Below, piece by piece: positions 4,724 through 54,218 of a stretch of DNA of 64,000 nt. The DNA comes from a virus. The translations under genes and the position numbers were made by a program. The DNA lies in the IMG/VR virus record IMGVR_UViG_3300021961_000073, positions 1 to 64,000 of that record. One strand, 5' to 3'. Numbering within the stretch: the stretch's first letter is position 1; the number at the start of each line of letters is the position of its first letter. The notes under the pieces were generated by a model, which was given only the letters and a program-made list of their open reading frames with translations, did no database searches and was not told the origin of the DNA.

Positions 4724-4769
4724 GTATAATAGATACTAAAATATGATAGTTATCATCTGGAGTTACTTT

Positions 4770-16554: not shown

Positions 16555-16562
16555 TATTTATA
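16555..16562 (-). promoter_or_regulatory. late promoter TATAAATA, minus strand
   Basis: Exact TATAAATA on the minus strand, ending 5 bases before the ATG of the 198-residue gene. The expected start site falls on or next to that ATG, so the transcript would be almost leaderless for this gene but would serve gp54, gp26 and the tape measure. Confidence 0.7.
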
Positions 16563-18900: not shown

Positions 18901-20246
18901 TGAGCACAGATTCGAAAACATATCAATCGGGTAACGATTATATATTAACTGCCGTGGTAGTTACCAATGAATATGGTGAAGCAATAAATGTAAGGAATAA
19001 TGTACACAGTATCAGTATATACGAGAATCTTGAACGACCTTATCTAACGGGTGACATTATAATTAAAGACGACTTTGGATTTTATGACAAATTTAAAATC
19101 AACGGGACCGAAACAGTAGTTATAACCCTTACCAATCCTACACTAGAATTTACAGTTATTAAAACTTTTATATTATCCGAGATACCTAGCTATGCTAAGA
19201 CTGGCGACTATGCCGAAATACTTCATATAAAATTAATTGAGAAAATAGGGTTTGACAACCAACTGACTAAATTTAGCAGGTCCTATCAAGGTAATCCAGC
19301 AAAGATAATACAAAAGATTGTTCAAGATAATTTAGGCGGTGCTGCTGTTATTGTAGGAGGAATACCTCCAGTTCAAAGTAATTCAACTAAATTTGTTGTT
19401 CCATATTCTACGGCATTTGAAGCATGTGAGATGATAAAAAATAGAGCATGTACACAATACGGTCTTCCTTTCTTTTTTTATAGAACTTTAGTTGATGATG
19501 ATTTTCAATTTAAATCCGTTGAAGAGATGATATTAACTCCGCCCTGGAATCAAGGTCTACCATTTAGATATTCTGAAGCTTTTACTAATTCAGATATACA
19601 TCACCATTCCCAACTTAATGCATTCATTGTCCAAGGCTTTAGTGCTTTACATAAAGAAAATGCTCTTAAATTGGTTGAAGCAGCTGCAGTAGGATCTAGC
19701 TATCAAATTATAGACGTAACTTCTGGAAGAAGAGAAACTTTCCAATATAATGTAGAAACAGTATTTAATGATTTATATGAAGGTAAAATTTTATCACTTG
19801 AAGAAAATCCTGTTATGACTACTGACTATCATAGAGGCGATCTACAATTTATAGGTCAACTTCCTTCGAAAGTGGTTTCGAGGGTAGTAATGAATAATAC
19901 ACACGGGACAGACTTTAAAAATTGGGTAGAAGAGGATCAAATATCTGCCTACCGATTAGATGCTGCTAGGCTTTCTCTTAGTGCTATGCTTAAGAAAAAT
20001 TCTATTAATATATCTGTTCCAGGATCAATGTTTTTATATGAAAAGAATAGATCTATAGGTGCACAGATTGATTTCTTCTATCATACTACTGATACACAAC
20101 TCCTCGATGCAGGTGAAGTAAGTGAAGATGATATAAGAGATAAGAAAAGGTCTGGTAAATATGTCGTGTATGCAGCCCGGCATTCTTTCACTTTAACCTC
20201 ACATGATGTTGAATTATCTGCAGTAAAATTAGGAAACTTGACATGA
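18900..20246 (+). CDS. 27: gp27-like baseplate hub protein, 448 aa
   Basis: Hub protein of the gp27/gpD class. Residues 35-110 (VHSISIYENLERPYLTGDII, TETVVITL, SYAKTGDYAEILHIKL) form the first tube-like barrel, and residues about 140-260 (GNPAKIIQKIVQDN, PYSTAFEACEMIKNRA, GLPFFFYRTL) match the pattern of hub proteins. T4 gp27 has 391 residues and binds gp5. The gene overlaps the gp5-like gene by 4 bases, so the products are probably made together. I assigned it from motif order and context. Confidence 0.78.
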   Translation: MSTDSKTYQSGNDYILTAVVVTNEYGEAINVRNNVHSISIYENLERPYLTGDIIIKDDFGFYDKFKINGTETVVITLTNPTLEFTVIKTFILSEIPSYAKTGDYAEILHIKLIEKIGFDNQLTKFSRSYQGNPAKIIQKIVQDNLGGAAVIVGGIPPVQSNSTKFVVPYSTAFEACEMIKNRACTQYGLPFFFYRTLVDDDFQFKSVEEMILTPPWNQGLPFRYSEAFTNSDIHHHSQLNAFIVQGFSALHKENALKLVEAAAVGSSYQIIDVTSGRRETFQYNVETVFNDLYEGKILSLEENPVMTTDYHRGDLQFIGQLPSKVVSRVVMNNTHGTDFKNWVEEDQISAYRLDAARLSLSAMLKKNSINISVPGSMFLYEKNRSIGAQIDFFYHTTDTQLLDAGEVSEDDIRDKKRSGKYVVYAARHSFTLTSHDVELSAVKLGNLT

Positions 20247-21214
20247 AGCCTATAAAAAAAGAATTCTATGGTGATAGCTTTAGATGGTTTATTGGGGTAG
20301 TTGAGGAACGCTCATCCGATCAACCCCGATTAGGTAGGGTCAAAGTTAGGATATATGGTGTACACGGTAATAGAGAAGAGATCCCAGTAGCTGATCTACC
20401 TTATGCTCAAGTATTAGTACCAACTACTGAACCAGGGGTTTCAGGACTAGGTAGAAATCCTATGCTCACTGAAGGTGCTACAGTGTTCGGTATATTCTTA
20501 GACGGAGAGACTTCTCAGCTTCCGTTAGTTTTAGGATCTCTCCCTGTTATCGAAGTACCTTCTATAGATCAATTGAATATGGAATCAAATGATGAAGCAT
20601 TAAACAATACCCTAAAGAAGATACACGGAACTATTATCGGCGGAACTGTTGGTGCTGGCACAGGTGGTACTGCAGGGATGAGGAGCGCATTAGCCAATGG
20701 GTTAGATGGCTTTGAATATGACGTAGATGCAAATGCCGGAAACAATATACAAGTTGCATGGGAATGGTTAACACTCAGTGGTAAGTTCTCATTCCCAGTT
20801 ATAGCTGGTCTTTTAGGAAACTTCTTAGTAGAAAATGGATCAGGTAATCCAATTGATTTGAATCCATTTTTCGGAAGTTCTAAATCAGGTATCGCAGGTT
20901 GGGACTCTAAAGGTGTTCGAAAACAGCTACTAGAAAGTTATGCTGCAGAAAGAAAACAAGATCCACGGAGTCTTTATGTTCAATTAGAATTTGTCTTATG
21001 GGAACTAGCTACATCACCTGAATATAAGAGCGCTGAGTTAAAAACTATGAAGACCCCAGCTGAAGCAGCTTTACATGTCCAAAGAAATTATTTGAACGTT
21101 CCCTTCGGCGGTGGTATATCATCAGTAGACGGCCAAAAATCCAGACAACAAGAAGGTGAAAGAGTAGCTTATGCTAGAATGATTTATGATCAATTTACTA
21201 GGAAAACAGGCTAA
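20243..21214 (+). CDS. 5: gp5-like spike protein with OB fold and tail lysozyme, 323 aa
   Basis: Residues 14-105 are the gp5 OB domain (FRWFIGVVEERS, PRLGRVKVRIYGVH, GATVFGIFLDG, LPLVLGSLP). Residues about 168-290 match the phage tail lysozyme family (AWEWLTLSGKFSFP, VIAGLLGNFLVENG with Glu197 as candidate catalytic acid, SGIAGWD, LYVQLEFVLWEL). T4 gp5 has a different, T4L-type lysozyme here and continues into a beta-helix. In this phage the protein stops and the beta-helix is encoded two genes on. It acts on peptidoglycan while the tail crosses the envelope. Confidence 0.85.
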   Translation: MKPIKKEFYGDSFRWFIGVVEERSSDQPRLGRVKVRIYGVHGNREEIPVADLPYAQVLVPTTEPGVSGLGRNPMLTEGATVFGIFLDGETSQLPLVLGSLPVIEVPSIDQLNMESNDEALNNTLKKIHGTIIGGTVGAGTGGTAGMRSALANGLDGFEYDVDANAGNNIQVAWEWLTLSGKFSFPVIAGLLGNFLVENGSGNPIDLNPFFGSSKSGIAGWDSKGVRKQLLESYAAERKQDPRSLYVQLEFVLWELATSPEYKSAELKTMKTPAEAALHVQRNYLNVPFGGGISSVDGQKSRQQEGERVAYARMIYDQFTRKTG

Positions 21215-23007
21215 TGGCAATAAGTATAGGGGATCTAAATAAAGCACTAGGCCAATTAAGAAGCCAAGTAAACACCTTTGAAGCTACTGCTAAATTTCAA
21301 GATGCCTCTGAAGGTATTGAAAAAGCTTATAATAACCCATTCAGTAAATTATCACAAGACCATGGAACAGTAGTTGACGGTGTAAAAGCTTTAGGACAAA
21401 ATACTGATAATCTTGCTGATGAAGAAGAAGCTAAACTTAAACCAATGGTCACTAAACTTGATCCAACTATCTCGGAAAAATTTCCTGAATTAAAAGGAAG
21501 TATCGGAGATGCTAGTGCTATGGACAAAATGTTTAAAAGTTATTTGGTTAATGCACAAGCTCTATACACAGCAGCAAAGCCAGCAGTAACAACTGAAGCC
21601 AGGATGTTAGATGAAATAGTACAAGATGGTTCTTTACAATCTACTGTAGTGACTATATCAGATCGAACTGGCAAAAGCTTAGAAGATACTACAAAAGAAT
21701 TAGATAAATTTAAACCTGAAAATTTAACTAGTGATTATAATACATTAGTCAAGAAGGTTAAATCCGAAGAATTTCAGAAAGAGTTCTCCGCGGCCAATAA
21801 TAAGTTATCTGGTCTTATGGATAGATTTACTGGTGGATTTGGTTCTGGTGGTGGTCTTATGAAAAACTTAACTGAGAAACTTACTAGTAATATAAGCAGC
21901 GCTACTAAAAGCTTAGATCTACCAAATGTAAACAGCAGAGGGATAACGAGTCAGGTTCTATCGGGAGACGCAGCAGGAGCTAGAAATATTCTATCTTCTA
22001 AGGTGACAATCCCATCTAGCCTTTCATCTTTTGCTAGTTCTTTCCCAGGGGCAACCGCAGGATTAGACGGTACAACTACTTTTGGAAATAGTAAGCAGTT
22101 ATCTAGCTTTTTAACTGGAACTAAAAATAAAATAAGTGATCCAGGTTTACAAACCCAACTTGGACAAGCTACTTCTAAAGCTGATAGTATTTTTACTAAA
22201 ATTACCGATCGTCTAGGATCTGTAGGTGGGGCAGTTACTCCAGCACCAGAAACGCCAACTAATAATAATCCCGTAGTTAATTATACTACTAAAAAAGTCA
22301 AGCCTTATCAATTAATGAATTCTACTGAAGAAATAGTTAAATATCTTCAAGCCGCAAACCGAGAGCTTAGTACACTCACGGTTGGTTGGACTCAATTACC
22401 ATTAGATAACTCAAATTGGACTGCTTGGAATTATGCAAATGCTGTGACCCAGGCGGTTGGAGCAAATGCTACACCTGATGATCCTAACTATAGACCATTT
22501 CAGGGAGATGTGCTATATGGCACAAGTCATTTCTTTATAAGAAAAGACGGAACCTTAGAAACTGCACGACCAATAGATCTGCTAAGAGGATATAGCACAT
22601 ATAGACCTGACGGCGTAGACGTTTTCGGTCCATATAACGTGTTTGTAATCTTTAATGCTGGTTATAATTGTTATAGAAAGAAATTTAAAGGCGGTAAAAT
22701 TCCTCAATCGGAGTTAACTGCTCAAAGTATTACTGCAGAGCAATGGAAAACATTTAATATGCTATTAGATGCTTGGTATACTTTCTTCCCAGCTGGTGAT
22801 GCTTTCGGACAATTAGATTTATATAAAGAATTCAAATCACCATCACCTGGGTTTGACGTACCTTCTTATGTTGGTAAAGCCCCGTGGAATAAAGCTAATA
22901 CTGGAGAGCCTAAGGTTCTAAACAGGCTTTTAAGCCCAGACGAAATTGCAATACAGAATAAAGAACAGATGCTAGTAAAACTTAGAGAAATTAGGGACTA
23001 TATGTAA
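21214..23007 (+). CDS. baseplate hub-associated protein with amidase-like domain, 597 aa
   Basis: The N-terminal 350 residues are helical and Ser/Gly-rich (hinge GGFGSGGGLMK), like virion linker proteins. Residues about 380-535 resemble an N-acetylmuramoyl-alanine amidase of the Amidase_2 type: SHFFIRKDGTLETARP corresponds to the H-F-x-I-x-x-D-G strand (His439), YNVFVIFNAGYN to the next strand, and AEQWKTFNMLLDAWYTFFP to the helix. The first metal histidine is replaced (GWTQLP near 392) and the last one reads GQLD near 533. It may therefore bind but not cut peptidoglycan. It lies between the two spike genes, coupled by one-base overlaps. Confidence 0.7.
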   Translation: MAISIGDLNKALGQLRSQVNTFEATAKFQDASEGIEKAYNNPFSKLSQDHGTVVDGVKALGQNTDNLADEEEAKLKPMVTKLDPTISEKFPELKGSIGDASAMDKMFKSYLVNAQALYTAAKPAVTTEARMLDEIVQDGSLQSTVVTISDRTGKSLEDTTKELDKFKPENLTSDYNTLVKKVKSEEFQKEFSAANNKLSGLMDRFTGGFGSGGGLMKNLTEKLTSNISSATKSLDLPNVNSRGITSQVLSGDAAGARNILSSKVTIPSSLSSFASSFPGATAGLDGTTTFGNSKQLSSFLTGTKNKISDPGLQTQLGQATSKADSIFTKITDRLGSVGGAVTPAPETPTNNNPVVNYTTKKVKPYQLMNSTEEIVKYLQAANRELSTLTVGWTQLPLDNSNWTAWNYANAVTQAVGANATPDDPNYRPFQGDVLYGTSHFFIRKDGTLETARPIDLLRGYSTYRPDGVDVFGPYNVFVIFNAGYNCYRKKFKGGKIPQSELTAQSITAEQWKTFNMLLDAWYTFFPAGDAFGQLDLYKEFKSPSPGFDVPSYVGKAPWNKANTGEPKVLNRLLSPDEIAIQNKEQMLVKLREIRDYM

Positions 23008-25511
23008 TGGCAGATGAAGACATCAATCTAGACGAAGCAAGTATTACTAATTCTGGTGGCGGATTCTCTGATCCTAGAGGCGAATATCCTAGAGTAAATT
23101 ATTATTATAAACCATCTTTAAACCAAGAAATTTATGGTCAAGCAAAAACTATAGTAGGACTTGGTGGTGGGGATCCTGCTGTTAATTTGATTGGATTTAC
23201 AGCTGGTGATACGGTACCACCTCAATATGGTAAAATACAAATCCAAGAAACTGCTTCTGGGCATAAATTTATTATGGATGATACGCCCGGCGGCGAGCGA
23301 GTGGTTGTGTATCATAAGACTGGGGCTGGCGTAGAGCTTAAGCCAGACGGAACTGTAAACATACGTTCTAAAAATAATATGGCAATTATGATCGATGCAA
23401 ATGGTGTAATATACACCGAAGGCGATCTACGAATCTCTGCTAAGAATCTATCTTTAGACGTCCGCGGCGATTTGGATATGACAGTTCATAATGACTGGAA
23501 GATTAATGTAAAGGGCGATGTGAAGGAAAAGATTGAAGGGGCTTATAGACAAGAGATTCTTAAGAACTTCGGGCAAGAGGTCCACAAGAACGTTAATAAA
23601 ACAGTATTGGGATCTGAAACACAAACAGTATTGGGAAATTACTATAACATAGTAAAGCTCAATGCTGAATATACTGTCGGACAAGAATTTAAGAATGCGG
23701 TAGGCGCTGGCTATAAAACTACAGCACAGGGTGAAATGGTACAATCGGCACCAAGCGTTAGTATCTCAGCAGGTGATTTAAGTGTCGTAGGAGCTGGTGG
23801 TACGATTGGCGGCGATAAGATGATCTACTATGGAAACACCGCTCATATAGATCGTGTAAACTCTACAGCCATGTATGCTACCACATTCCATGGCTCATTA
23901 CACGGCAAAGCAGAGTTCGCTTCAAAGGCAGATCAGGCGGGCGTTGCTCCTCCTGGACCTGGTTCTGGCGGCGGTACCTATACCTATGATTCAGCAGATA
24001 ACAACATGACCACCGAACCAACTGAAGATATGATGGAGAAGGTTCTTACGTATTCTTCAAGAGGCGTGGTAAAAGTACAGGTTGATAAAGACGATTTCAT
24101 TAAGAATAAGATCGATCGTACTGTGGATATGGGTAACGTAATTAATAGAAAACTGGATGCTAATGAAGTCCGGGTCAGAATGAAAGAAGAAAAGCATCAA
24201 AACAATTCCAAATTTATCGGTCAGGTAATTGCAGACAAGGTGCTTTCAGAGGCATATATCAATAAGACTCCACCAAATGTCGGAAGAACTTACAGCGGTC
24301 CTGGATCCGTATCGTTTGTCCCACAGGGGGCGAACGTTACAGCAGCTGGTACAGGAACAGGCAAATTCATTACTGGCAGTAGAGAAAGTTTCAAAGGATT
24401 TAAGCCTGATTCTAAATACGATCCAATGGCTATCCCGCCAATTGATGGTGTTACATCCATAAACTCAAAAACTGAAGTCGGGGCTGGAATACCTATCTCT
24501 ACGTTCTTAACTGGTAGGGGATTCGCTACTAACCTAGGTCACTTGGGTACTTTCGAAGATAGACAAGCATTAGCCCGACAGCTCTTGTTACAATCTGAGG
24601 TTATTAAATTAGCCAGAAACAATAAGGATGCTTATAAAGATTTCAGATGTGTAGTTACTGAAGGCATATACAAACCGTATGATACCGAGGAACTTACAGA
24701 GGGGGAAATACTAGATCTTTCTTCTAAGGGAAGAGCTATAACGTATGAATTGTTCGACGAAAGAAATAAACAATATACTGAAATTACCTATCAATTCGCC
24801 GAATATCTTGCAGAATATCTAGTAGGATATGATAAGATTGCTTTATATTACGATCAATATGATCCCAAGGTTGATGCTATTCACAGTCAAATAACTGTTA
24901 TTATGCCAGAAGTAGATGATGAATATAAATGTGCACCTCCTACATATAAATTAGAAACATACTTCAACGGTAAGCTGTTAAGCAATAGTGATTTACAAGA
25001 AGTTATTAACTATTCTTCACCAGCAGTTGGTAAAATAGGTAACGCTATACCGGGGGAACAGATCTTACAATATGAGGTAAGTGGCATTCGTGATCTTCCT
25101 TGCAATAGATCATTTGAAAGGATATTGGTAGATTCAGCTAAAGCTGTTAAACTCGATAAGGTAGTTATTACCTCAGCTAAACAGCCTGGTACGAGTGGCA
25201 GAAGGCTTGGATCTATGAGACATGATACAGGTAATGCTGCCGATGTTTATTTAGTGTACAAAGGCAGAATCTTAAATTCTTCTAAATTGACTGATAGAAC
25301 TGTTATGATGAAATTTATTTCAGAGTGTGTTGGTCGTGGTGTTAGAGGCGCTGGTCATGGTGAAAAATATATGGGCCCAACAATTCTCCATTTAGATACG
25401 CTAGGACAGAGTCTCGGCTCCGGTCAATTTAATCCACAAATAACAACTACGTGGGGAGATTCTGAATGGCTTTTTGCTGCAGTAACTGATGCTAGAAACT
25501 CAATAGTTTAA
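23007..25511 (+). CDS. spike beta-helix protein with M15-type peptidase domain, 834 aa
   Basis: Residues about 80-330 repeat short strands (GVELKPDGTVNIRSKNN, YTEGDLRISAKNLSLDVRG, DLDMTVHNDWKINVKGD), the beta-helix of the T4 gp5 needle, beginning with GHKFIMDDTPGGERVV, which matches the gp5 post-lysozyme region. A Pro/Gly-rich linker is at 325-340. The last 120 residues have an M15 zinc peptidase signature: RHDTGNAADV (His739, Asp746; H-x-x-G-x-A-x-D) and TILHLD (His795). It would add a DD-peptidase activity to the puncturing device. No OB or lysozyme domain is present; these are on the gene at 20243. Confidence 0.8.
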   Translation: MADEDINLDEASITNSGGGFSDPRGEYPRVNYYYKPSLNQEIYGQAKTIVGLGGGDPAVNLIGFTAGDTVPPQYGKIQIQETASGHKFIMDDTPGGERVVVYHKTGAGVELKPDGTVNIRSKNNMAIMIDANGVIYTEGDLRISAKNLSLDVRGDLDMTVHNDWKINVKGDVKEKIEGAYRQEILKNFGQEVHKNVNKTVLGSETQTVLGNYYNIVKLNAEYTVGQEFKNAVGAGYKTTAQGEMVQSAPSVSISAGDLSVVGAGGTIGGDKMIYYGNTAHIDRVNSTAMYATTFHGSLHGKAEFASKADQAGVAPPGPGSGGGTYTYDSADNNMTTEPTEDMMEKVLTYSSRGVVKVQVDKDDFIKNKIDRTVDMGNVINRKLDANEVRVRMKEEKHQNNSKFIGQVIADKVLSEAYINKTPPNVGRTYSGPGSVSFVPQGANVTAAGTGTGKFITGSRESFKGFKPDSKYDPMAIPPIDGVTSINSKTEVGAGIPISTFLTGRGFATNLGHLGTFEDRQALARQLLLQSEVIKLARNNKDAYKDFRCVVTEGIYKPYDTEELTEGEILDLSSKGRAITYELFDERNKQYTEITYQFAEYLAEYLVGYDKIALYYDQYDPKVDAIHSQITVIMPEVDDEYKCAPPTYKLETYFNGKLLSNSDLQEVINYSSPAVGKIGNAIPGEQILQYEVSGIRDLPCNRSFERILVDSAKAVKLDKVVITSAKQPGTSGRRLGSMRHDTGNAADVYLVYKGRILNSSKLTDRTVMMKFISECVGRGVRGAGHGEKYMGPTILHLDTLGQSLGSGQFNPQITTTWGDSEWLFAAVTDARNSIV

Positions 25512-38644: not shown

Positions 38645-40651
38645 ATGGCCGAAGTGCTACTTAAACTAGCAGATGCCAATGGTAACCTAAAAGGCATCAC
38701 AACATCAGAGCAAGATTATCTTGCCTATCAAGCTGGATTACAGCTTGCTGATGCTGATAGCGCTGAGGTTGGATCGTTGACTAGATCAGCAACTGGATCG
38801 ACCAGTATCGGTTCTTTTAGTGATACCGCATTCGATCAAGCTATCGGTACACATCCCGGAACTTCAATCACGACCAGTACTACAACTACTACAGTTTATC
38901 AGAAAACTGGTACTGCATCTGAGGCTGGTTCAGATTTTCATCGTCCAGTAGCCTTAATGGATGATACTGATACTACTCCGCCACAAGATATTAAAGTGAT
39001 GAATGATACAAGATTAAATACTCTTGTAAACAGCTTAATCAGCACCATTTTCACTAATGATTATCCTGGAACTTATCGCTTAGGTACAAGTGCTCCAAGT
39101 GGCGATTATGCTACATATATTTCTGGTATCTTCACAGATACGCGTACAGATGGCACAAGTGTAACTTATAATCTTTATAAAAGAAATACGTATACACCTC
39201 CAACCGCAGTAAATCCTTTAAGAATTGCTAACACATTCGATTTAAAAGAAATGTCTGATGCTGAGATTAAGTACACTCTCGGTCAGCGTGCTAAGACACA
39301 GATCATGTCAACTGGGGTTGGTAAGTATCAGTTAAGAAGCTCTGTACAAGGTGTACCATCAGATCCTGGTACATGGGTGGCAAAAGGTACTGCAACAGAT
39401 ACGAAAACCACTACTGCTGATGTAAATTATACTAGGACTTCACAAACAGATTATCAATCAAATTATGATGCGGCGTATATTCGCAACTACGAAGGAAACT
39501 ATATTAATACCTATAGCAGAACCAGAACCTCTGCATATACTACAGATTATGTCGGATATTCTGGTGCATATGTAGCCACTTATATCAGTAACTATGAAGG
39601 CGACTATATCTCTAATTACGAAGGCGATTATACGGGAGCCAATTACGAAGCAGCATATGATGGCACTTTCTATGAGTCAGCATATGAAGGTGCTTTCTAT
39701 GAGTCAGCATATGATGGCACTTTTTACGACGGTGCTGATTATCAAGCAGCATATGAAGGCGCTGATTTCCAAAGAACTTCGTTCCTAACGTATCAAACAA
39801 ATTATCAAGGAAACTATATAGGGGATTATCTTGGTAATTTCCAGGGAACATATGTAGGTGACCAAGGGTATACTCCATCGGTAAATTATCAGAGAACTAG
39901 GGTTACTACATTTATTAACTTCTTCAGTAATCCTATTTTTTACGGCGGAAGACTTCATGGATATTTTGGATCATATGGAGGATATTTCGAAGGCAACTTC
40001 CTCGGGGATTACGTTGGTGTTCAAAATTTCCAAAGAACTAGTACAAGATCTAGATCTTCAACATATACAAATGTTCAAAACTACAATGGTCGTATTCTTT
40101 ACTTTGGTGGAGTCACGGTTTTCTTTGCAGGTAATTATTTAGGAGACTTTGGTGCAAATACATATGATGGTGATGGGCCATCATTCGTAGGATCTGTTAC
40201 TTCCATTTTCACTAGAACTTCAATAACGCCTTATACCGGAGATTATCAAGCTGGATATCTAGGTAACTATATAGGAAATTTTTTAACAGATTACCAAGGG
40301 ACTTACCAAGGGACATATATCTCAAATTACGTAGGTGATTACATTTCTAATTACGTTGGGACATATCTCACGGATTATGAGGGTACGTACATAACTGCCT
40401 ATGAATCAGCCTACCAATCCGCCTACGAGTCTGCTTATGATGGGGATTATGTGGGCGATTACACTGGGGATTATATAGCTGATTACGAAGGCAACTATGA
40501 TAGAGACTTCGTGGGGGACTACGAAGCTGATTATATAGCCACATATATATCTAACTACACGGGAGATTATACCGGAGACTTTTCTGGAGAAACCATTCAA
40601 GCGCCCACTACAACTGTAGAAACGTATACTTTATACGTGAGGACTTCTTAG
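38645..40651 (+). CDS. aromatic tetrapeptide-repeat fibre protein A, 668 aa
   Basis: The N-terminal 220 residues are a docking and linker region (LADANGNLKGITTSEQDYLA, FTNDYPGTYRLG, FTDTRTDGTSVTYNLYKR). From about residue 260 to 650 the chain is dominated by Tyr/Phe spaced four residues apart (ISNYEGDYISNYEGDY, ESAYEGAFYESAYDGTF), interrupted by a block with FFSNPIFYGGRLHGYFG at about residue 425. It ends YTLYVRTS. The downstream gene is a paralogue sharing all these landmarks. No known family; adhesion or fibre function is inferred from position after fibre genes. Confidence 0.7.
   Translation: MAEVLLKLADANGNLKGITTSEQDYLAYQAGLQLADADSAEVGSLTRSATGSTSIGSFSDTAFDQAIGTHPGTSITTSTTTTTVYQKTGTASEAGSDFHRPVALMDDTDTTPPQDIKVMNDTRLNTLVNSLISTIFTNDYPGTYRLGTSAPSGDYATYISGIFTDTRTDGTSVTYNLYKRNTYTPPTAVNPLRIANTFDLKEMSDAEIKYTLGQRAKTQIMSTGVGKYQLRSSVQGVPSDPGTWVAKGTATDTKTTTADVNYTRTSQTDYQSNYDAAYIRNYEGNYINTYSRTRTSAYTTDYVGYSGAYVATYISNYEGDYISNYEGDYTGANYEAAYDGTFYESAYEGAFYESAYDGTFYDGADYQAAYEGADFQRTSFLTYQTNYQGNYIGDYLGNFQGTYVGDQGYTPSVNYQRTRVTTFINFFSNPIFYGGRLHGYFGSYGGYFEGNFLGDYVGVQNFQRTSTRSRSSTYTNVQNYNGRILYFGGVTVFFAGNYLGDFGANTYDGDGPSFVGSVTSIFTRTSITPYTGDYQAGYLGNYIGNFLTDYQGTYQGTYISNYVGDYISNYVGTYLTDYEGTYITAYESAYQSAYESAYDGDYVGDYTGDYIADYEGNYDRDFVGDYEADYIATYISNYTGDYTGDFSGETIQAPTTTVETYTLYVRTS
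39425..40590 (+). repeat. degenerate 12-nt (tetrapeptide) repeats in protein A
   Basis: Coding repeats in which an aromatic residue recurs every four codons with frequent one-residue phase shifts (for example YEGDYTGANYEAAY). Local 9-residue units (YESAYEGAF) give near-identical DNA such as TTCTATGAGTCAGCATATGA, present twice. Confidence 0.8.
39919..39956 (+). repeat. 38-nt identity block, copy 1
   Basis: The 38 bases are identical to 42193-42230 in the paralogous gene and lie in the same reading frame, encoding the SNPIFYGGRL core. Flanking sequence is similar but not identical, so the block is conserved more strongly than its surroundings. Confidence 0.9.
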
Positions 40652-40653
40652 GA

Positions 40654-40661
40654 TATAAATA
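40654..40661 (+). promoter_or_regulatory. late promoter TATAAATA just before repeat protein B
   Basis: Exact TATAAATA ending 5 bases before the ATG at 40667. The expected start site would fall on the ATG, giving a leaderless mRNA for protein B unless translation begins further in. Confidence 0.6.
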
Positions 40662-40666
40662 GCATC

Positions 40667-43051
40667 ATGCCTATAACTCATATACCACTTCAACTGAAAG
40701 ACGCATCCGGCAATCTGGAGATCATGAATGATTCTTCGGATCTGAATTATCTTGCGTACAGAGCTGGCATTTGGCTTTCTAATACTGCTGATTCTTCAGA
40801 CGTTAGTCGTATAGGTTCTTCCGGTTCAGTTGCTGATGAGATCGGTTTACATAGTGATACAGTATATGATCAAGCTGTTGGTGCTCACAGTGCGCTATCG
40901 ATTACGACTACGACTACTAAGATATATCAAAAAGATGGCAGCGCATCAGTATCAGATGCAGCTGGTTGGAGACGACCAACTTATTGGAATAGTGGTATAG
41001 TAGAAATGGCTGATAGTGATTTATCAGTTTTAGGAGATAATCTAGCTGGTCGTATTTTTACCAATGATTATCCTGGAAGTTATAAACTTCAGTCTTCAAG
41101 CCCTGGTGCAGATTATACTGCAGTATTAACGAATATTTTTACTGATACTAGAACAGATGGTACTACCGTTAACTACACATTATGGCAGAGAACTGCCATT
41201 TCTTCTGGTACGCCAACGGGTAAGACATACTTAAGAATTAAAGGAACTCAATCAGACGAAGGAAGTTCTTACTCTGGTACACAAGAAGCTACAGATGCTC
41301 AAGTCCAATATACTTTAGGTAAGACTGTAGGAAACAGGATTATGTCATCTGGGGTTGGGAAATACCAATTGCGCTCTTCTGCTCAAGGTGTCCCAACAGA
41401 TCCTGGCACATGGGCATCTAAAGGTTCAGCTAGCGATACTCGTCAGGATGTAGGGCAAGTTAATTATACAAGGGACGCTATAGAAAACTACACCCGTACA
41501 AGCCAGACAATTTATGTAGGTAACTACACTACAAATAGTACTGCTTTCTATACTAGAATTAGAACAAGTCTTTTCTTAAATAACTATACTCGTGCTTCTG
41601 CGATTACTTTCCAACAAAATTATACAAGAGCAGTTAACGTTGATTACACTCGAGACAGTACTCGTATAACAAACGTTGATTACACTCGCGACAGTACTCG
41701 TGACGCTCAGGAGAATTATACAACTAATTTTCAGCGTACCAGCACTCGTATAACAAACGTAAACTATACTCGTAATAGTACTCGTGACGCTCAAGAGAAT
41801 TATACCACAGCTTATACGCGTGATAGTACTAGGGTGTCAAACGTAAACTACACCAGAGATAGTACTCGTGACGCTCAGGAGAATTATACCACAGCTTATA
41901 CTCGCGACAGTACTCGTATAACAAACGTTGATTATACTAGAAATAGTACTCGTGACGCTCAGGAGAATTATACTACAGCTTATACTCGCGACAGTACTCG
42001 TATAACAAACGTTGATTATACTAGAAATAGTACTCGGCTTTCTCAACGGACAACATTTGTAAACTACACAAGACAAAGACAAACTAACTATACTCGTGAA
42101 TCGAACGTAAACTATCAAAGAACTAGAGCTACAAATTATACGAGAAATAGTGCTGTAAATTTCCAAAGAATTAGCACTCGCCAGCGCATCAGCTTCTTCA
42201 GTAATCCTATTTTTTACGGCGGAAGACTTCTTGGATATTTCGGAGGATATGGAGGTTATTTCCAGGGCAACTTCCTTGGCGACTTTGTAGGCGACTTTAT
42301 AGGCGACTTCGTGGGCAACTTCCTTGGCGACTATGTAAGAGGATTTATAGGCGACTTCGTGGGCAACTTTGACGGTGATTATATTAGAGGATTTTTAGGG
42401 GATTACACAGGCGATTTTACGGGAAACTACATCAGAGGGTTTGATGGTAACTACGTTGGTAACTACGACAGGGATTTCCTAGGCAATTATACAGGCGATT
42501 TTGCGGGAAACTACATCAGAGCGTTTGATGGTAACTACGTTGGTAACTACGACAGGGACTTTTTGGGAAATTATACAGGTAACTTTATTGGAGACTACGT
42601 CAGAGGGTTTACTGGTAACTACGTTGGTAACTACGACAGGGACTTTTTGGGGAATTACACTGGGGATTACGTAGGCGACTATATAAGAGCGTTTGATGGT
42701 AACTACGTTGGTGATTTCATAGGAGATTACCTAGGTAATTATACTGGTAACTATACAGGTAACTATATAAGAGCGTTTACAGGAAATTACATAGGTAACT
42801 ATATAGCAACGTATGAGGGAAATTATACGGCAGATTACCAGTCTAATTACATTGGTGATTACACTGGGGACTATGAAGCTGCATTTGAGGGTAATTACCA
42901 AAATGATTACTTAGGAGACTTTATCGGTAATTACACCGGGGATTATTTAGGAAACTTCGACGGCAACTATATTGGCGATTATTCTGCATCGACCATTTTA
43001 GGGACGTCGTCTGGAATAGAGGTATATACACTATACGTCAGAATATCATGA
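40667..43051 (+). CDS. aromatic tetrapeptide-repeat fibre protein B, 794 aa
   Basis: Paralogue of the upstream protein A: same N-terminal landmarks (LKDASGNLEIMNDSSDLNYL, FTNDYPGSYKLQ, FTDTRTDGTTVNYTLWQR, KYQLRSSAQGVP), the same SNPIFYGGRL block and the same YTLYVRIS end. Residues about 260-505 are an Arg/Thr-rich zone of 12-residue units such as YTRDSTRITNVD. Residues about 532-773 are 59 consecutive tetrads, each with Tyr or Phe in position 4, usually x-G-N/D-Y. Super-repeats of 28 residues carry IRAF or DRDF. No known family. Probably an extended virion fibre or adhesin. Confidence 0.7.
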   Translation: MPITHIPLQLKDASGNLEIMNDSSDLNYLAYRAGIWLSNTADSSDVSRIGSSGSVADEIGLHSDTVYDQAVGAHSALSITTTTTKIYQKDGSASVSDAAGWRRPTYWNSGIVEMADSDLSVLGDNLAGRIFTNDYPGSYKLQSSSPGADYTAVLTNIFTDTRTDGTTVNYTLWQRTAISSGTPTGKTYLRIKGTQSDEGSSYSGTQEATDAQVQYTLGKTVGNRIMSSGVGKYQLRSSAQGVPTDPGTWASKGSASDTRQDVGQVNYTRDAIENYTRTSQTIYVGNYTTNSTAFYTRIRTSLFLNNYTRASAITFQQNYTRAVNVDYTRDSTRITNVDYTRDSTRDAQENYTTNFQRTSTRITNVNYTRNSTRDAQENYTTAYTRDSTRVSNVNYTRDSTRDAQENYTTAYTRDSTRITNVDYTRNSTRDAQENYTTAYTRDSTRITNVDYTRNSTRLSQRTTFVNYTRQRQTNYTRESNVNYQRTRATNYTRNSAVNFQRISTRQRISFFSNPIFYGGRLLGYFGGYGGYFQGNFLGDFVGDFIGDFVGNFLGDYVRGFIGDFVGNFDGDYIRGFLGDYTGDFTGNYIRGFDGNYVGNYDRDFLGNYTGDFAGNYIRAFDGNYVGNYDRDFLGNYTGNFIGDYVRGFTGNYVGNYDRDFLGNYTGDYVGDYIRAFDGNYVGDFIGDYLGNYTGNYTGNYIRAFTGNYIGNYIATYEGNYTADYQSNYIGDYTGDYEAAFEGNYQNDYLGDFIGNYTGDYLGNFDGNYIGDYSASTILGTSSGIEVYTLYVRIS
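41629..42040 (+). repeat. 36-nt tandem coding repeats (Arg/Thr-rich) in protein B
   Basis: Units of 12 codons alternate between YTRDSTRITNVD-like and YTRNSTRDAQEN-like forms, with YTTA inserts. The DNA of adjacent units is close to identical (for example the shared GACGCTCAGGAGAATTATAC), which suggests recent tandem expansion. Confidence 0.85.
42193..42230 (+). repeat. 38-nt identity block, copy 2
   Basis: Identical over 38 bases to 39919-39956 in the upstream paralogue, in the same frame. It marks the border between the Arg/Thr-rich zone and the tetrad array. Confidence 0.9.
42261..42986 (+). repeat. array of 59 coding tetrads (12-nt units) with 84-nt super-repeat
   Basis: Reading the frame gives 59 consecutive four-residue units ending in Tyr or Phe without exception, mostly x-G-N-Y or x-G-D-Y/F. 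IRGF, IRAF or VRGF units fall at tetrads 14, 21, 28, 35 and 42, and DRDF at 17, 24 and 31, so a 7-tetrad (28-residue, 84-nt) super-repeat overlies the basic period. Confidence 0.9.
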
Positions 43052-43060
43052 GGATGACTA

Positions 43061-43522
43061 ATGGAAAAATCATGGAAGTACCCGTTTTGGGAAAATTATC
43101 AAAAAGATCGAATTACTGCAAGACTTTTAATTAAACATAACGACGGTAAAGAGACCTGGTCTACTGCTACTATCAGTAAATATGATGCAAAGGGTAATCT
43201 TAACCCAGATTTTCAAGCGTGTGTGGACCAAAATACAATCGAAGCTATAGACAAGCACACTGCTGAACGGCAAGAGCGCCATAAGCAAAGAAGAGAAGAC
43301 GATAAAAAAGCAGATAAGGAAAGAAAACAAGCTAAAAAGCTTGAAGAGCTTTTTAATGATAAATTAGAGATCTTTGAAATTGATATAGTTAAAAATTCTA
43401 AGAATAGACTACTTAAGTCTAAAATCAGGAAAGCCAAAAACCGTTATGAAATGATTGGCTTTTTATCAATATTAATGAAAGAAGAATATGATGCCGAAAC
43501 AGCAGCAGCAGCAGCCGAGTAG
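43061..43522 (+). CDS. charged coiled-coil protein after the fibre genes, 153 aa
   Basis: Unrecognised. The first 60 residues look globular (KYPFWENYQKDRITARLLIK, then ATISKYDAKGNLNPDF). Residues 65-98 are a highly charged coiled coil (TAERQERHKQRREDDKKADK), followed by a basic helical end and a run of five Ala. It starts 9 bases after protein B with AGGATGACTA upstream. Its position suggests a fibre chaperone or accessory, but no motif proves that. The 3' end overlaps the glycosyltransferase gene by 35 bases. Confidence 0.6.
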   Translation: MEKSWKYPFWENYQKDRITARLLIKHNDGKETWSTATISKYDAKGNLNPDFQACVDQNTIEAIDKHTAERQERHKQRREDDKKADKERKQAKKLEELFNDKLEIFEIDIVKNSKNRLLKSKIRKAKNRYEMIGFLSILMKEEYDAETAAAAAE

Positions 43523-44285
43523 AGGATTTGTAGTAGTAGCTTCTAAAAAAATTGCTTTCTACTACTCTGCTATAAATTTAATAGAATCCATATTAGATTA
43601 TATGCCTGATGCACAGTTTGCCTTTTTCTGCGAACCGTGGATGAGAGATCATAGGTGCGAAGATCCCAACATTCAATTATTTGACTGTGGCGATCATATC
43701 AGGGAAAAGCTTTACGGCATGGCTAACTCACCGTTTGACTATACCTTCTACATTGACGCGGACTGTGAATGTTGTCATGAAGATATTGTTACTATTTGGG
43801 ATCAATTTGAAGGTGATGATATTAAATTTGTAGAACTTACTAAGGATGAAGTAGCACAAAGATCTTTTGTAGAAGTAAATGCTAGAATACCTAGTATTGA
43901 TGCAGATATTGATTTAAGACTTTGTGGTGGTGTTTGTTTATATGATAATAGTAATCCCCTGGTAAAAGAATTTATAAGAGACTGGTATGAAAAATATCTT
44001 ATTCAAGAGGCAATAGGTGAGGCGAAAGAATATGGGCTGCCTAATGTATGGTTTCCTCCTGACACTCCAAGATCTATGTTAAGATGGGATCAATTTACTT
44101 TATGGTGGATGGTTAATATGGAAGATAAATATAAAGATCTTAAAATAGGAATATTTAAGGAAAATTATAGATGGAACTGGTTTACTAGTTTCAGAATAGG
44201 GTCTGACGGTAAACATAGATTAGTAGATAAACCACCTGTGATTGTCCACAATTCTGCAAATATGAATAAGGATGCTGCATACTAA
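43488..44285 (+). CDS. glycosyltransferase, GT-A fold with DxD, 265 aa
   Basis: A GT8-like sugar transferase. After a Gln-rich start, FVVVASKKIAFYYSAINLIE begins the nucleotide-binding fold, the metal-binding DxD is Asp90-Ala-Asp92 in FYIDADCEC, and LCGGVCLYDNSNPLVKEFI followed by RWDQFTLWWMV matches the acceptor half. The conserved final histidine may be in VIVHNSA. It would use a UDP-sugar on an unknown acceptor. The gene overlaps both neighbours and sits in a three-gene cluster directly after the Tyr/Asn-rich repeat proteins, which makes virion glycosylation the simplest guess. Confidence 0.75.
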   Translation: MMPKQQQQQPSRGFVVVASKKIAFYYSAINLIESILDYMPDAQFAFFCEPWMRDHRCEDPNIQLFDCGDHIREKLYGMANSPFDYTFYIDADCECCHEDIVTIWDQFEGDDIKFVELTKDEVAQRSFVEVNARIPSIDADIDLRLCGGVCLYDNSNPLVKEFIRDWYEKYLIQEAIGEAKEYGLPNVWFPPDTPRSMLRWDQFTLWWMVNMEDKYKDLKIGIFKENYRWNWFTSFRIGSDGKHRLVDKPPVIVHNSANMNKDAAY

Positions 44286-44968
44286 TGACGATAATGAGGA
44301 AGATACAACTGAATAATAAAGAAGTGTTAGAATCTTTAAACAAATATTCTTCACTTATTCAGGAATCTTATCACAATGGTAATATGGATAAAGCATTTAT
44401 GTTGAATTCTGATAGACATACCCGTGACAGATGGATAGCTGACGATTACCGGGATCGAATCATACAAAGATTCGATCAACATGAGGGCTACCCAGAAAGT
44501 ATGAGGTGTTATCACGGTACTGCTCCCTCTAATGGTAGCGATAAAATGGATCGTTTTAAAGATTCGAAAGTAGCATATCCTATTAGAGAAGCTGCAGTAG
44601 AATTAAATTCAGAAATGATGACTTCTCTTTCAGCTAAAAGAAACGCGCTTTGTGCAACCTACCCGCCGGGTGGATGGATTAGCTGGCACAATAATGCAAA
44701 TGCTTCTGGTTATAATATTCTTTTTACATGGTCTGAAAATGGAAATGGATGGTTTAGATATTATGATTTAGAAAAAAAAGAAAATGTAACGATCTATGAT
44801 AAGCCAGGTTGGCAGTGTAAAATGGGATACTTTGGGCCTTATGATAACCCAGATAGTCTTTGCTATCACTGTGCATCAACTGAGGATCTTAGGATTACTG
44901 TAGCTTACATGTTTATCGAAGCAGATAACTTCTGGGAAGAAGTAGTCTATGACATTGAAAACGGTTAA
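44285..44968 (+). CDS. 2OG-Fe(II) oxygenase, asparaginyl-hydroxylase-like, 227 aa
   Basis: The segment YPPGGWISWHNNANASGYNI followed by LFTWSENGNGWFRYYD belongs to the oxygenases found near fibre genes in marine T4-like phages. Candidate ligands are His135 and Asn137 (an HxN where most enzymes have HxD) and His195 in CYHCA, with Arg203 in DLRITVAY for 2-oxoglutarate. The missing carboxylate ligand could reduce or alter activity. It lies between two glycosyltransferases and overlaps the second by 20 bases, suggesting a joint modification pathway. Confidence 0.72.
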   Translation: MTIMRKIQLNNKEVLESLNKYSSLIQESYHNGNMDKAFMLNSDRHTRDRWIADDYRDRIIQRFDQHEGYPESMRCYHGTAPSNGSDKMDRFKDSKVAYPIREAAVELNSEMMTSLSAKRNALCATYPPGGWISWHNNANASGYNILFTWSENGNGWFRYYDLEKKENVTIYDKPGWQCKMGYFGPYDNPDSLCYHCASTEDLRITVAYMFIEADNFWEEVVYDIENG

Positions 44969-45704
44969 TGTCGTATGCGTTAAATGGGGTAAAACCTATA
45001 CCTACGAACATGTAAATAGACTTTTTAAAATGGTTAAGAGGAATCTTTCGATCCCTTTTACATTCTATTGTTTAACCGAAGATCCTGAAAATTTAAACAA
45101 CGAAATAGTACCAATTCTCCTAAACGAAGAATTATGTTTAGAAGGATTTTGGTGGAAGATGTGTATGTTCCAAAGATCCTTATATAAGGAAGATTTACCC
45201 ACATTATATTTTGACATTGACACAATTATACAAAAAGATATTACTTCATTCTTCGATAATTTTCAAGAAGATAAAATTAGAATACCTTATCTTGGTGCAT
45301 ATCCAGAAGGAGATGCTTATAAAAATCCTGCAGTAGTAAATTCTTCAATTATGCTATTTAGACCTAGCAAATCAGAAAAAATATTTAATTCATTTATACA
45401 GGATGCTGATTACAATATAATTGAATATCAGGGCGTTTGTCGATATTTATGGGGCAAACATAGTGACAATTTAATATATTATAATTATATGAATCATTTT
45501 TATTCTGCGATATCAGTTCCCTATGTAGCGAAGCTATATAGAGATGGTATGGAAAAATATAAAGGAAAAGTAAAATCTAAAATTCGTCGAGGCTCTGTAG
45601 CATATTTTTATATAGAAGATGTTCCAGTCTGTCTCCTAAACGGAGCTACCAGAGATGGTGTCCTAGATCAACTTTATGAGAAATTTTCTTCGTATTACGA
45701 TTAA
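44949..45704 (+). CDS. second glycosyltransferase, GT-A fold with DxD, 251 aa
   Basis: Starts with the nucleotide-sugar fold (TVNVVCVKWGKTYTYEHVNR, then FTFYCLTEDPENL). The DxD is Asp89-Ile-Asp91 in TLYFDIDTII, and FWWKMCMF and VVNSSIMLFRPSKS are further family features. It differs from the neighbour at 43488, so the two are not recent duplicates and may add different sugars. It is codon-overlapped with the oxygenase, ends 18 bases before a late promoter, and shares its A/T-rich composition with the surrounding genes. Confidence 0.75.
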   Translation: MTLKTVNVVCVKWGKTYTYEHVNRLFKMVKRNLSIPFTFYCLTEDPENLNNEIVPILLNEELCLEGFWWKMCMFQRSLYKEDLPTLYFDIDTIIQKDITSFFDNFQEDKIRIPYLGAYPEGDAYKNPAVVNSSIMLFRPSKSEKIFNSFIQDADYNIIEYQGVCRYLWGKHSDNLIYYNYMNHFYSAISVPYVAKLYRDGMEKYKGKVKSKIRRGSVAYFYIEDVPVCLLNGATRDGVLDQLYEKFSSYYD

Positions 45705-45764: not shown

Positions 45765-46115
45765 ATGGCACAATACGAAGATCTCATGATTGATCAAGGA
45801 ACTGATGTTGCTATTGAGCTAGATCTCCTTGACAAAGACGGTGATAGAAAAAACCTTGCCGGTTATTCTGTTGCTGCGAAAATGAAGAGAACGTATAATA
45901 GTGATAGTGATAATACTACAACTTTTTCAGGTCTTATTACAGATGCCAGCAAAGGTCAAATTACACTTAGCTTAACCAATACACAAACTGATGCTTTAAA
46001 AGCTGGTCGTTATGTATATGATGTAGAGATTTCGTATGTTGATAGTGATTCAAATACTATCATCGAAAGAATCCTTGAGGGAAATATACACGTTTCACCA
46101 TCTGTTACAAGGTAA
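45765..46115 (+). CDS. structural protein, BppU-like domain, 116 aa
   Basis: A single beta-sandwich domain. MIDQGTDVAIELDLLDKDGD, NLAGYSVAAKMKRTYNSDSD, KGQITLSLTNTQTDALKAGR and YVYDVEISYVDSD follow the order of baseplate upper-protein (BppU) N-terminal domains, and RILEGNIHVSPSVT is the usual end in marine T4-like phages. It should bind a baseplate or fibre partner. It starts after a late promoter and is followed 4 bases later by a 78-residue gene. Confidence 0.72.
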   Translation: MAQYEDLMIDQGTDVAIELDLLDKDGDRKNLAGYSVAAKMKRTYNSDSDNTTTFSGLITDASKGQITLSLTNTQTDALKAGRYVYDVEISYVDSDSNTIIERILEGNIHVSPSVTR

Positions 46116-52882: not shown

Positions 52883-53688
52883 TGCTTGGCACATATTTCT
52901 ATCATGAACGTATAAGAAAAAGCGTAGCCATGTTTGGCTCCTTGTTTAATAACATATATGTGCTTCGAAAAAATGCAAGCGGTGAGGTATTAAGCCAGGT
53001 AAAGGTTCCCTTGGCATATGCACCAAGAAGAGATTATATAGAGCGTATAAGAGAAAATCCTGATTTAGATACAGATACCAAGGTTGCACTTAAACTACCA
53101 CGTATGTCTTTTGAGGTTCTTGGTTATTCTTATGCACCAGAAAGACAGCTAACCAAAATAGGAAAAAGAACTCCTACTGCTACTTCTGGAAGTACAAGTC
53201 AAAAGGCAAAACTTTTCAATTTTGTTCCCTACAATATTGATATGCAACTTAACGTCTATACTAAGACGCAAGATGATGCTTTGCAGATTGTAGAACAAAT
53301 ATTACCATACTTTAGTCCGCAATATAGTTTAACGATTAAACCATTTTCAAACTACGCAGATATAAAAGAAGACGTTCCTATTATTCTTAACAGTGTATCA
53401 TATTCTGATGATTTCGAAGGGACATTAGGTGATCGTAGATCTATAATGTACCAATTAGATTTCATAATGCACGCTAACTTCTATCAAGGTATCGAAGATA
53501 CAGGTATTATCCGTAAGGTTACTAACAATTTCTATGTTGGTGGTAATTTAAAAGATTCTGATGGATTTGGCGGCGAGCTTACCCCTTCACCAATATTAAC
53601 AGTAGAGCCAAATCCTCTTAACGTAAGTCCAGACAGCGATTATGGATTTACTGTAACTCTTAGCAATATACCCGGAGATTCTGCATAA
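52882..53688 (+). CDS. 15: gp15 proximal tail sheath stabiliser, 268 aa
   Basis: Homologue of T4 gp15 (272 residues), which caps the tail for head joining. Family landmarks: YHERIRKSVAMFGSLFNNIY, KVPLAYAPRRDYIERIRE, VALKLPRMSFEVLGYSY and PYNIDMQLNVYTKTQDDALQ followed by IVEQILPYFSPQYSL. The last 25 residues (SPILTVEPNPLNVSPDSDYG and on) are beyond the family core. It overlaps both neighbours by one base. Confidence 0.93.
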   Translation: MLGTYFYHERIRKSVAMFGSLFNNIYVLRKNASGEVLSQVKVPLAYAPRRDYIERIRENPDLDTDTKVALKLPRMSFEVLGYSYAPERQLTKIGKRTPTATSGSTSQKAKLFNFVPYNIDMQLNVYTKTQDDALQIVEQILPYFSPQYSLTIKPFSNYADIKEDVPIILNSVSYSDDFEGTLGDRRSIMYQLDFIMHANFYQGIEDTGIIRKVTNNFYVGGNLKDSDGFGGELTPSPILTVEPNPLNVSPDSDYGFTVTLSNIPGDSA

Positions 53689-54218
53689 TGAAATATTTTG
53701 ACTATATAGCATGGAACGGGAATGTGTTATCAACAAAGGTATGTGAAGATATTATAGAATGGTTTGAAGATAAAAAAGATCATATAATAGAAGAAAGAAA
53801 AGAAGGCGTTCACCAAGATATTATATCTAATCCCAGTAAATTCGATTCTTTCGGTTTTTTACATAAAGAGATTATAAACGGGCTTAAGATTCAGTTTGAT
53901 ACATATAGAAAAGAGTTTAGATGGTGTCCAAGTAATTTTGACTCGATGTCTTATAAGATACAAAAGTCATATCCGGGAAAAGGATTTACCGCTTGGCATG
54001 CTGAAGATGGAAATAATACAAATAGATTTTTAGTGTGGATGATTTATTTGAATCATACTATAGGTGGTCAAACACAATTTTATGATCAGCATAAACATTT
54101 TAAACCGGAACCAGGCTTATGTCTTATTTGGCCTTCTGGCTGGAGTCATACTCATAGATCTATGCCGAATTTAAAAAGTAATAAATATATCATGACAGGA
54201 TGGTGGCATTATGCGTGA
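53688..54218 (+). CDS. 2OG-Fe(II) oxygenase between gp15 and gp16, 176 aa
   Basis: P4H-like core: FTAWHAEDGNNTNRFLVWMI and YLNHTIGGQTQFYDQ, then KPEPGLCLIWPSGWSHTHRS and a basic end NKYIMTGWWH. Candidate ligands are His104-Ala-Glu106 (HxE in place of HxD) and His154, with Lys166 for 2-oxoglutarate. This type is recurrent in the neck/terminase cluster of marine T4-like phages, where its substrate is unknown. It overlaps gp15 by one base and gp16 by 8 bases, so it is made with virion assembly proteins. Confidence 0.8.
   Translation: MKYFDYIAWNGNVLSTKVCEDIIEWFEDKKDHIIEERKEGVHQDIISNPSKFDSFGFLHKEIINGLKIQFDTYRKEFRWCPSNFDSMSYKIQKSYPGKGFTAWHAEDGNNTNRFLVWMIYLNHTIGGQTQFYDQHKHFKPEPGLCLIWPSGWSHTHRSMPNLKSNKYIMTGWWHYA

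What the first reader, a model, noticed from the sequence alone, without database searches (positions are those of the whole stretch)
42261..42986. 59 consecutive aromatic tetrapeptides with a 28-residue super-repeat
Protein B carries an unbroken series of four-residue units in which the fourth is always Tyr or Phe, mostly x-G-N/D-Y/F. Arg-bearing units recur every seven tetrads (14, 21, 28, 35, 42) and DRDF units at 17, 24, 31. Period four does not match the usual phage-fibre repeats or beta-helix periods that I know. An aromatic ladder with a charged mark every 28 residues suggests a new solenoid or silk-like fibre fold.
Basis: partly seen in the sequence, partly recalled or inferred. Interest (0 to 1): 0.8.

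Follow-up and report, generated by a model that had tools for sequence, protein, structure and literature searches.

The report
Giant aromatic-repeat loop on phage tails
A marine T4-like phage and many uncultured relatives encode a tail-locus protein whose last hairpin loop has been blown up into a huge, apparently unfolded chain with a tyrosine or phenylalanine at nearly every fourth residue, followed by a glycosyltransferase-like and an unusual oxygenase-like gene, a family found in no annotation library searched here.

Summary
In detail: protein B (40667-43051) has 63 unbroken tetrads ending in Tyr/Phe (aa 521-772, 42227-42982). Shuffled sequence never exceeded 9. The same 4-residue register runs through the TR-rich stretch before it, paralogue A, and 83 non-redundant members. 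The 28-residue super-repeat is an 84-bp tandem duplication, the dominant lag in only 8 of 83 members, so not a fold constant.

Shown: the array interrupts the last hairpin of a tandem-module base domain (loop about 8 aa in the sister module; 141-1526 aa in complete non-redundant members). AlphaFold2 folds base and C-terminal strand but nothing of the array. Arrays of A and B lack Lys, Cys and Trp. All 62 testable relatives of the downstream oxygenase-fold gene carry an array upstream, in the order array, 153 aa, glycosyltransferase-like, oxygenase-like. The oxygenase has HxN where HxD/E is canonical.

Inferred: a disordered, multivalent sticker-spacer loop displayed on the tail and modified by these enzymes. 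A new solenoid or silk fold is not excluded but has no positive support. No credible family match in Pfam, PHROGs, PDB or BFVD; one annotated phage (C48C1, 'hypothetical protein') carries it.

The parts
40667..43051 (+). ORF B, 794 aa: base domain + TR array + xG[ND][YF] array + C-terminal strand
40667..41461 (+). Folded base domain of B (aa 1-265); at least two tandem helix + beta-hairpin modules
   Evidence: AlphaFold2 pLDDT mostly 75-95; module 1 vs module 2 hhalign prob 94.9, E 4e-8 against controls E about 0.05 or worse
41144..41191 (+). Module-1 hairpin DTRTDGTTVNYTLWQR (8-aa loop), the 'empty-site' counterpart of the array
   Evidence: 34 of 44 members have an 8-aa loop here
41462..42226 (+). 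TR-rich array of B (aa 266-520), largely the same 4-residue register, no Lys/Cys/Trp
41644..42036 (+). 84-bp tandem repeat x4.7 inside the TR array
42227..42982 (+). 63 unbroken xxx[YF] tetrads, mostly x-G-[ND]-[YF] (the finding)
42402..42778 (+). 84-bp tandem repeat x4.5 = the 28-residue super-repeat
42995..43048 (+). C-terminal strand ...EVYTLYVRIS (aa 777-794), inferred to pair with strand 249-265
   Evidence: pLDDT 82-95; same motif as module 1 YTLWQR
38645..40651 (+). ORF A, 668-aa paralogue with the same base, interrupted tetrad arrays and C-terminal strand
40654..40661 (+). TATAAATA, T4-late-promoter-like, between A and B (weak: 15 sites in window vs 8.9 expected)
43061..43522 (+). 153-aa charged protein, directly after the last array gene in nearly all loci; function unknown (dedicated chaperone or adaptor inferred)
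43488..44285 (+). 265-aa glycosyltransferase-like protein with invariant DxD (GT-A type inferred)
44285..44968 (+). 227-aa protein with 2OG-Fe(II) dioxygenase (DSBH) fold, HxN...H...R motif
44949..45704 (+). 251-aa second glycosyltransferase-like protein (phrog_1962; PF03407 below cut-off), present in a subset of loci
45765..46115 (+). 116-aa protein of the L-shaped tail fibre assembly family

Best explanation
B (and A) are probably late virion proteins encoded in the tail-fibre part of a T4-like marine phage. A base of tandem helix-hairpin modules anchors the protein. The hairpin loop of the last module, about 8 residues in its sister module, has been replaced by a very long, Lys/Cys/Trp-free, mostly disordered chain in which Tyr/Phe (and Arg) 'stickers' sit on a 4-residue register separated by Gly/Asn/Asp/Thr/Ser spacers; the chain returns to the base and closes the hairpin with the conserved YTLYVR strand. 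Length and composition turn over by tandem duplication (84 bp here; other units elsewhere) while the register is kept. The array most likely works as a multivalent, low-affinity adhesive loop or brush at the tail for host envelope, exopolysaccharide or particles, and is probably modified by the glycosyltransferase-like and oxygenase-fold proteins of the same operon. SHOWN by computation: register, composition, loop insertion (by sequence and model), operon linkage, enzyme fold. INFERRED: display on the virion, disorder in vivo, adhesion, the array as enzyme substrate.
For: Array present in 40 IMG/VR loci found only by the base domain; independently, a DNA scan for five xG[ND][YF] tetrads retrieved mostly ORFs with that base and/or a YTLYxR-type end. 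Self-identity over 83 members 0.14-0.24 at lags divisible by 4, 0.07 otherwise. AlphaFold2: base and C-strand confident, aa 265-779 pLDDT <50 with no secondary structure up to aa 776. Module 1 versus module 2 + C-strand, hhalign E 4e-8; loop 8 aa versus 141-1526 aa. Lys 0 of 891 array residues of B and A versus 4.6% in 27 other genes; aromatic gap variance 0.3 versus 10.5 shuffled in the tetrad array, like published features of prion-like low-complexity domains (15-20% aromatic, evenly spaced; PMC9748015). Starting from the oxygenase alone, 60 of 62 loci score an array upstream by rule and the other two on reading. Divergent L250 keeps base, array, 153-aa homologue (hhalign prob 98.9) and oxygenase. 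Tail-locus context: gp25, gp6, gp9/10, gp8 upstream, fibre-assembly, neck, sheath, portal downstream.
Against: Low pLDDT with a 21-sequence alignment of low-complexity repeats cannot separate disorder from an unrecognised repeat fold or one that forms only in an oligomer. No virion proteomics. T4-like tail genes are syntenic anyway, so linkage may reflect shared descent. The oxygenase has HxN, not the canonical HxD/E, in every sequence checked and may be inactive. An oxygenase paralogue in L249 is not next to an array. Strand pairing of 249-265 with 777-792 is inferred from sequence and confidence; coordinates were not inspected.
Confidence: 0.5

Rival explanations
1. The array is an ordered, new period-4 beta structure (solenoid, stacked sheet or silk/amyloid-like) that forms only in the oligomeric or assembled virion, with a Tyr/Phe/Gly face and a polar/beta-branched face.
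For: Strict conservation of a 4-residue register over hundreds of residues and many members; alternation of G/Y/R with T/I/V/N/D inside the tetrads; some close pairs differ by array indels that are all multiples of 4 (L085/L112), though overall only 39 of 97 gaps are.
Against: AlphaFold2 gives no strand at all; register breaks, inserted globular domains and very different tetrad compositions are tolerated; no credible PDB or BFVD match.
Confidence: 0.25
2. The array acts inside the infected cell as a condensate-forming scaffold that concentrates tail parts during assembly, not as a displayed adhesin.
For: Sticker-spacer composition like prion-like domains; located among tail and fibre-assembly genes.
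Against: Length turnover, inserted globular domains in C48C1 and adjacency to modification-type enzymes fit a displayed surface better; no direct test.
Confidence: 0.12
3. The glycosyltransferase-like and oxygenase-like genes modify something else (other fibres, cell-surface glycans, DNA) and are merely syntenic with the array gene. (Not exclusive of the best explanation's structural part.)
For: Tail modules of T4-like phages are syntenic as a whole; an oxygenase paralogue lies away from an array in L249; cyanophages carry other 2OG oxygenases, for which DNA repair or 2OG/nitrogen roles were proposed (PMC3037559).
Against: Order and spacing are conserved even when searched from the enzyme side, and largely so in the divergent L250.
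Confidence: 0.35
4. The array is unselected slippage or an assembly artefact.
For: 84-bp tandem repeats; metagenomic contig.
Against: Open frame kept throughout; same register with different codons and units in 83 non-redundant members; complete loss of Lys/Cys/Trp in the arrays of A and B.
Confidence: 0.02

Closest known systems
Phage C48C1 (OQ984149, Kyanoviridae) CDS0201, 'hypothetical protein', 3347 aa
   Same: Same base domain (38% id), period-4 aromatic arrays, C-terminal TYTLYVRVA, same downstream gene families (153-aa, GT-like, oxygenase-like, 116-aa)
   Different: Four times longer, several globular domains inserted in the array; largely 12-residue units; single copy
x-G-[ND]-[VL] tetrapeptide arrays of cyanophage structural proteins (S-RIM2 SWTG_00067)
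   Same: Period four, Gly + Asn/Asp + hydrophobic
   Different: No aromatics or Arg in the array, no shared base domain or C-strand; the tblastn match covers only the array and looks compositional
Prion-like low-complexity domains (FUS, hnRNPA1)
   Same: Evenly spaced aromatic stickers, Arg stickers, Gly/Asn/Ser/Thr spacers
   Different: Viral, rigid 4-residue register, anchored at both ends as a loop, no Lys at all; condensation untested
Mimivirus collagen with viral hydroxylase and glycosyltransferase (PMC9546862)
   Same: Viral repeat protein together with hydroxylase- and glycosyltransferase-type enzymes
   Different: No Gly-X-Y triplets, almost no Pro or Lys, unrelated base domain, no activity shown
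Fe(II)/2-oxoglutarate dioxygenases (PHD2, P. putida P4H)
   Same: Double-stranded beta-helix fold, His...His...Arg spacing
   Different: Metal-site Asp/Glu is Asn (HxN) in all sequences checked; no sequence-family match

Membership tests
Fe(II)/2OG dioxygenase (w44285) | double-stranded beta-helix fold | tested here: met
   AlphaFold2 pLDDT 87.4; Foldseek top hits PHD2/P4H, prob 1.00, best E 2e-5, 98 hits at E <= 0.001
Fe(II)/2OG dioxygenase (w44285) | HxD/E...H metal triad | tested here: not met
   HxN in 81 of 81 motif matches (the search pattern itself favours WHxN) and in the divergent L250 (WHTN); distal His found in 77 of 81 by the pattern used (motif definition PMC4295552)
Fe(II)/2OG dioxygenase (w44285) | 2OG-binding Arg after distal His | tested here: met
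   R203 invariant in 14 sequences, 8 residues after H195
Glycosyltransferase GT-A (w43488) | family profile match | tested here: inconclusive
   PF00535 hits 8 of 15 members, best E 5e-4; none for the window protein
Glycosyltransferase GT-A (w43488) | DxD motif | tested here: met
   YIDAD, D90 and D92 invariant
Collagen-like repeat | Gly at every third residue | tested here: not met
   period is 4 and Pro is 0 of 252
Beta-solenoid / silk-like fibre | predicted regular secondary structure | tested here: not met
   no strand between aa 265 and 777 in the monomer model; oligomer not testable
Prion-like low-complexity domain | 15-20% evenly spaced aromatics, polar spacers | tested here: met
   13% (TR array) to 26% (tetrad array) aromatic, so bracketing rather than inside the range; gap variance 0.3 vs 10.5 shuffled in the tetrad array
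Prion-like low-complexity domain | phase separation | not testable with these tools
   needs experiment
Cyanophage xGN[VL] structural repeat | shared flanking domains | tested here: not met
   base domain finds only C48C1 in 50,697 phage records
Known phage tail-fibre families (PHROGs, Pfam) | profile match of base domain | tested here: not met
   no credible hit among 16 base domains (PHROGs); none for B or A (Pfam)

The most novel reading that the evidence does not exclude
A previously undescribed phage surface system: a hypervariable, loop-anchored sticker-spacer polymer on the tail, enzymatically decorated (hydroxylated and/or glycosylated) by a dedicated glycosyltransferase and a non-canonical HxN oxygenase encoded in the same operon, giving marine T4-like phages a tunable multivalent adhesive.
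Probability: 0.35. Interest if true: 0.88.

Novelty: new variant of a known kind. Interest (0 to 1): 0.7.

Why it matters
If the inference holds, it would be a displayed low-complexity polymer on a virus with its own modifying enzymes, a natural variation series (array loops of 141 to about 3,000 residues) for testing sequence rules of sticker-spacer polymers, and a lead to how uncultured marine phages attach. The invariant HxN metal site would by itself test what the carboxylate ligand is needed for in this enzyme superfamily.

Tried and rejected
Rejected: fibre shaft or trimer stalk (both ends anchor on one base); 28 residues as a fold period; relation to the S-RIM2 'structural protein' (array composition only, no shared domain); PDB matches to STAC3/SH3, P230 and pyridoxal kinase (low-complexity, E >= 0.0019). 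Led nowhere: single-sequence search for relatives (none; an alignment was needed); Foldseek of B against PDB and BFVD (run on the full model with 500 unfolded residues, so weak as a negative); DNA pattern for the FFSNPIFYGGRL motif (none); Rfam (none); 153-aa protein in PDB, Pfam and PHROGs (no credible hit); literature searches for this repeat and for phage C48C1. Melnitz, a cultured relative by portal protein (55%), shows no array or oxygenase match. Indel sizes were noisy in divergent pairs (39 of 97 multiples of 4), so not used as proof.

Full report
OBSERVATION. Residue shuffles of the stretch gave a longest run of 9 in 10,000.

REGISTER AND SUPER-REPEAT. The register does not start at the finding: the TR-rich stretch aa 266-520 (units like TRDS-TRIT-NVDY) is largely in a 4-residue frame, and paralogue A (38645-40651) carries interrupted arrays. 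Both arrays of B contain 84-bp tandem repeats (41644-42036 and 42402-42778). Equal residues 28 apart share their codon in 57% of cases against about 41% at most other lags, so the 28-residue mark is DNA duplication. In 83 non-redundant members (A and B included), self-identity is 0.14-0.24 at lags divisible by four and 0.07 otherwise, but the dominant lag is 4 (20 members), 8 (23), 12 (10), 28 (8), 24 (7), 44 (6) and others. The tetrad register is family-wide; the 28-residue period is not.

FAMILY. An alignment of the three base domains (A, B and phage C48C1) found 40 loci in IMG/VR; nearly all encode base + aromatic array (L040 is cut off early and only weakly periodic), and complete ones end in a YTLYVR-like strand, in L043/L044 followed by about 30 further residues. 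So the repeat is largely private to this family. Among annotated phages the base domain is found only in C48C1. Lengths in the family run from 420 to more than 3,500 aa.

ANATOMY. AlphaFold2 on B with 20 relatives: aa 1-265 folded, aa 265-779 pLDDT below 50 without secondary structure before aa 777, aa 777-792 a strand (pLDDT 82-95 for the last blocks). Modules aa 99-180 and aa 190-268 + C-strand are homologous (hhalign prob 94.9, E 4e-8; unrelated controls E about 0.05 or worse); a third, N-terminal module is suggested (E 5.5e-4, prob 30). Module 1 reads DTRTDGTxxNYxIYxR with an 8-residue loop in 34 of 44 members; module 2 reads DTKxx..., then 141-1526 residues of array (median 584, complete non-redundant members), then ETYTLYVRxA. 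The minimal member L250 shows it most simply: TLWKRT closes the first hairpin and KLWLRTA closes the second after a pure YTGx array. The array is therefore best read as an insertion in a hairpin loop. That the strands pair is inferred; coordinates were not inspected.

COMPOSITION. Arrays of B and A contain no Lys, Cys or Trp in 891 residues; 27 other genes of the window have 4.6% Lys and R/(R+K) of 0.48. Across 32 members, arrays hold 10 Cys and 149 Lys in 22,674 residues. Aromatic spacing in the tetrad array is far more even than chance (gap variance 0.3 vs 10.5). These resemble the published description of prion-like low-complexity domains (PMC9748015). FoldIndex is slightly to clearly negative (-0.01 to -0.22). 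This favours disorder but does not prove it.

NEIGHBOURS. The order array - 153 aa - 265 aa - 227 aa recurs in nearly all loci with downstream sequence (26, 25 and 21 loci). The 265-aa protein has an invariant DxD and weak PF00535 matches. The 227-aa protein has no family match, but its model (pLDDT 87.4) matches PHD2, P4H and other Fe(II)/2OG dioxygenases (prob 1.00, E 2e-5). H135, N137, H195 and R203 correspond to the metal and 2OG site in spacing (comparison with PHD2 numbering is from own knowledge), but the acid ligand is Asn in all 81 motif matches (the search pattern favours this motif). Reverse test: starting from this enzyme, at least 567 stretches were found and the best 80 kept; 60 of 62 with enough upstream sequence score an array upstream by rule, usually about 1.6 kb away, and the two failures (L201, L203) carry one on reading, in L201 with two fibre-like genes in between. 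The sample is of closest relatives, so partly one lineage; however the distant L250 keeps array, 153-aa homologue and oxygenase in order, with GT-like genes nearby in other positions, whereas an enzyme paralogue in L249 is not array-linked.

CONTEXT. The window is part of a 69-kb virus record with tail tube cap, gp53, gp5, gp25, gp6, gp9/10 and gp8 upstream and fibre-assembly, neck, sheath stabiliser, terminase, sheath and portal downstream. The portal is nearest to C48C1 (66%) and the OM43 phage Melnitz (55%).

MECHANISM. Most likely a displayed, flexible, multivalent loop for weak adhesion, modified by the linked enzymes. Thr, Gly and Tyr/Phe are the residues no member is short of (minimum 6.6%, 5.7% and 9.2%), so Thr or Tyr is the best guess for the modified residue. 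Virion display, adhesion and modification are inference. Rivals and refuting results are listed in their sections.

VERDICT. Observation confirmed; the 'new solenoid or silk fold' is unsupported by prediction but not excluded; the real finding is a large unannotated family with a loop-inserted aromatic polymer and a conserved putative modification operon.

Noticed in passing
window 7164-8375 (+): A class III CoA-transferase gene (PF02515, E 2e-118) in a phage contig; unusual auxiliary metabolic gene.
   Followed up: no
window 3916-4653 (-): Class 3 lipase gene (PF01764, E 1e-22).
   Followed up: no
window 16558-17046 (-): TnsA-like endonuclease N-terminal domain (PF08722, E 1e-18) next to the baseplate genes.
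   Followed up: no
window 4743-5456 and 53688-54218 (+): Two further 2OG-Fe(II) oxygenase genes (PF13759, PF13640), recognised by Pfam unlike the HxN family at 44285.
   Followed up: no
L001:12001-22044 (phage C48C1): Several globular, non-repetitive domains are inserted inside the aromatic array, as if the array were a display backbone.
   Followed up: partly
L249:7995-8636: A second WHNNANA oxygenase paralogue, not next to an array, in the same 142-kb phage-like contig as L248 (filed under a Sphingobacteriales MAG).
   Followed up: partly
window 42182-42343 and 39896-40054: Motif FFSNPIFYGGRLxGYFGxYGGYFxGNFLGD is strongly conserved between B and A (73% over the stretch) although the surrounding repeats differ; may be a small ordered or functional element.
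   Followed up: partly
window 20243-25511 (+): gp5-like hub/lysozyme matches fall on two separate ORFs (20243 and 23007) with another ORF between them.
   Followed up: no
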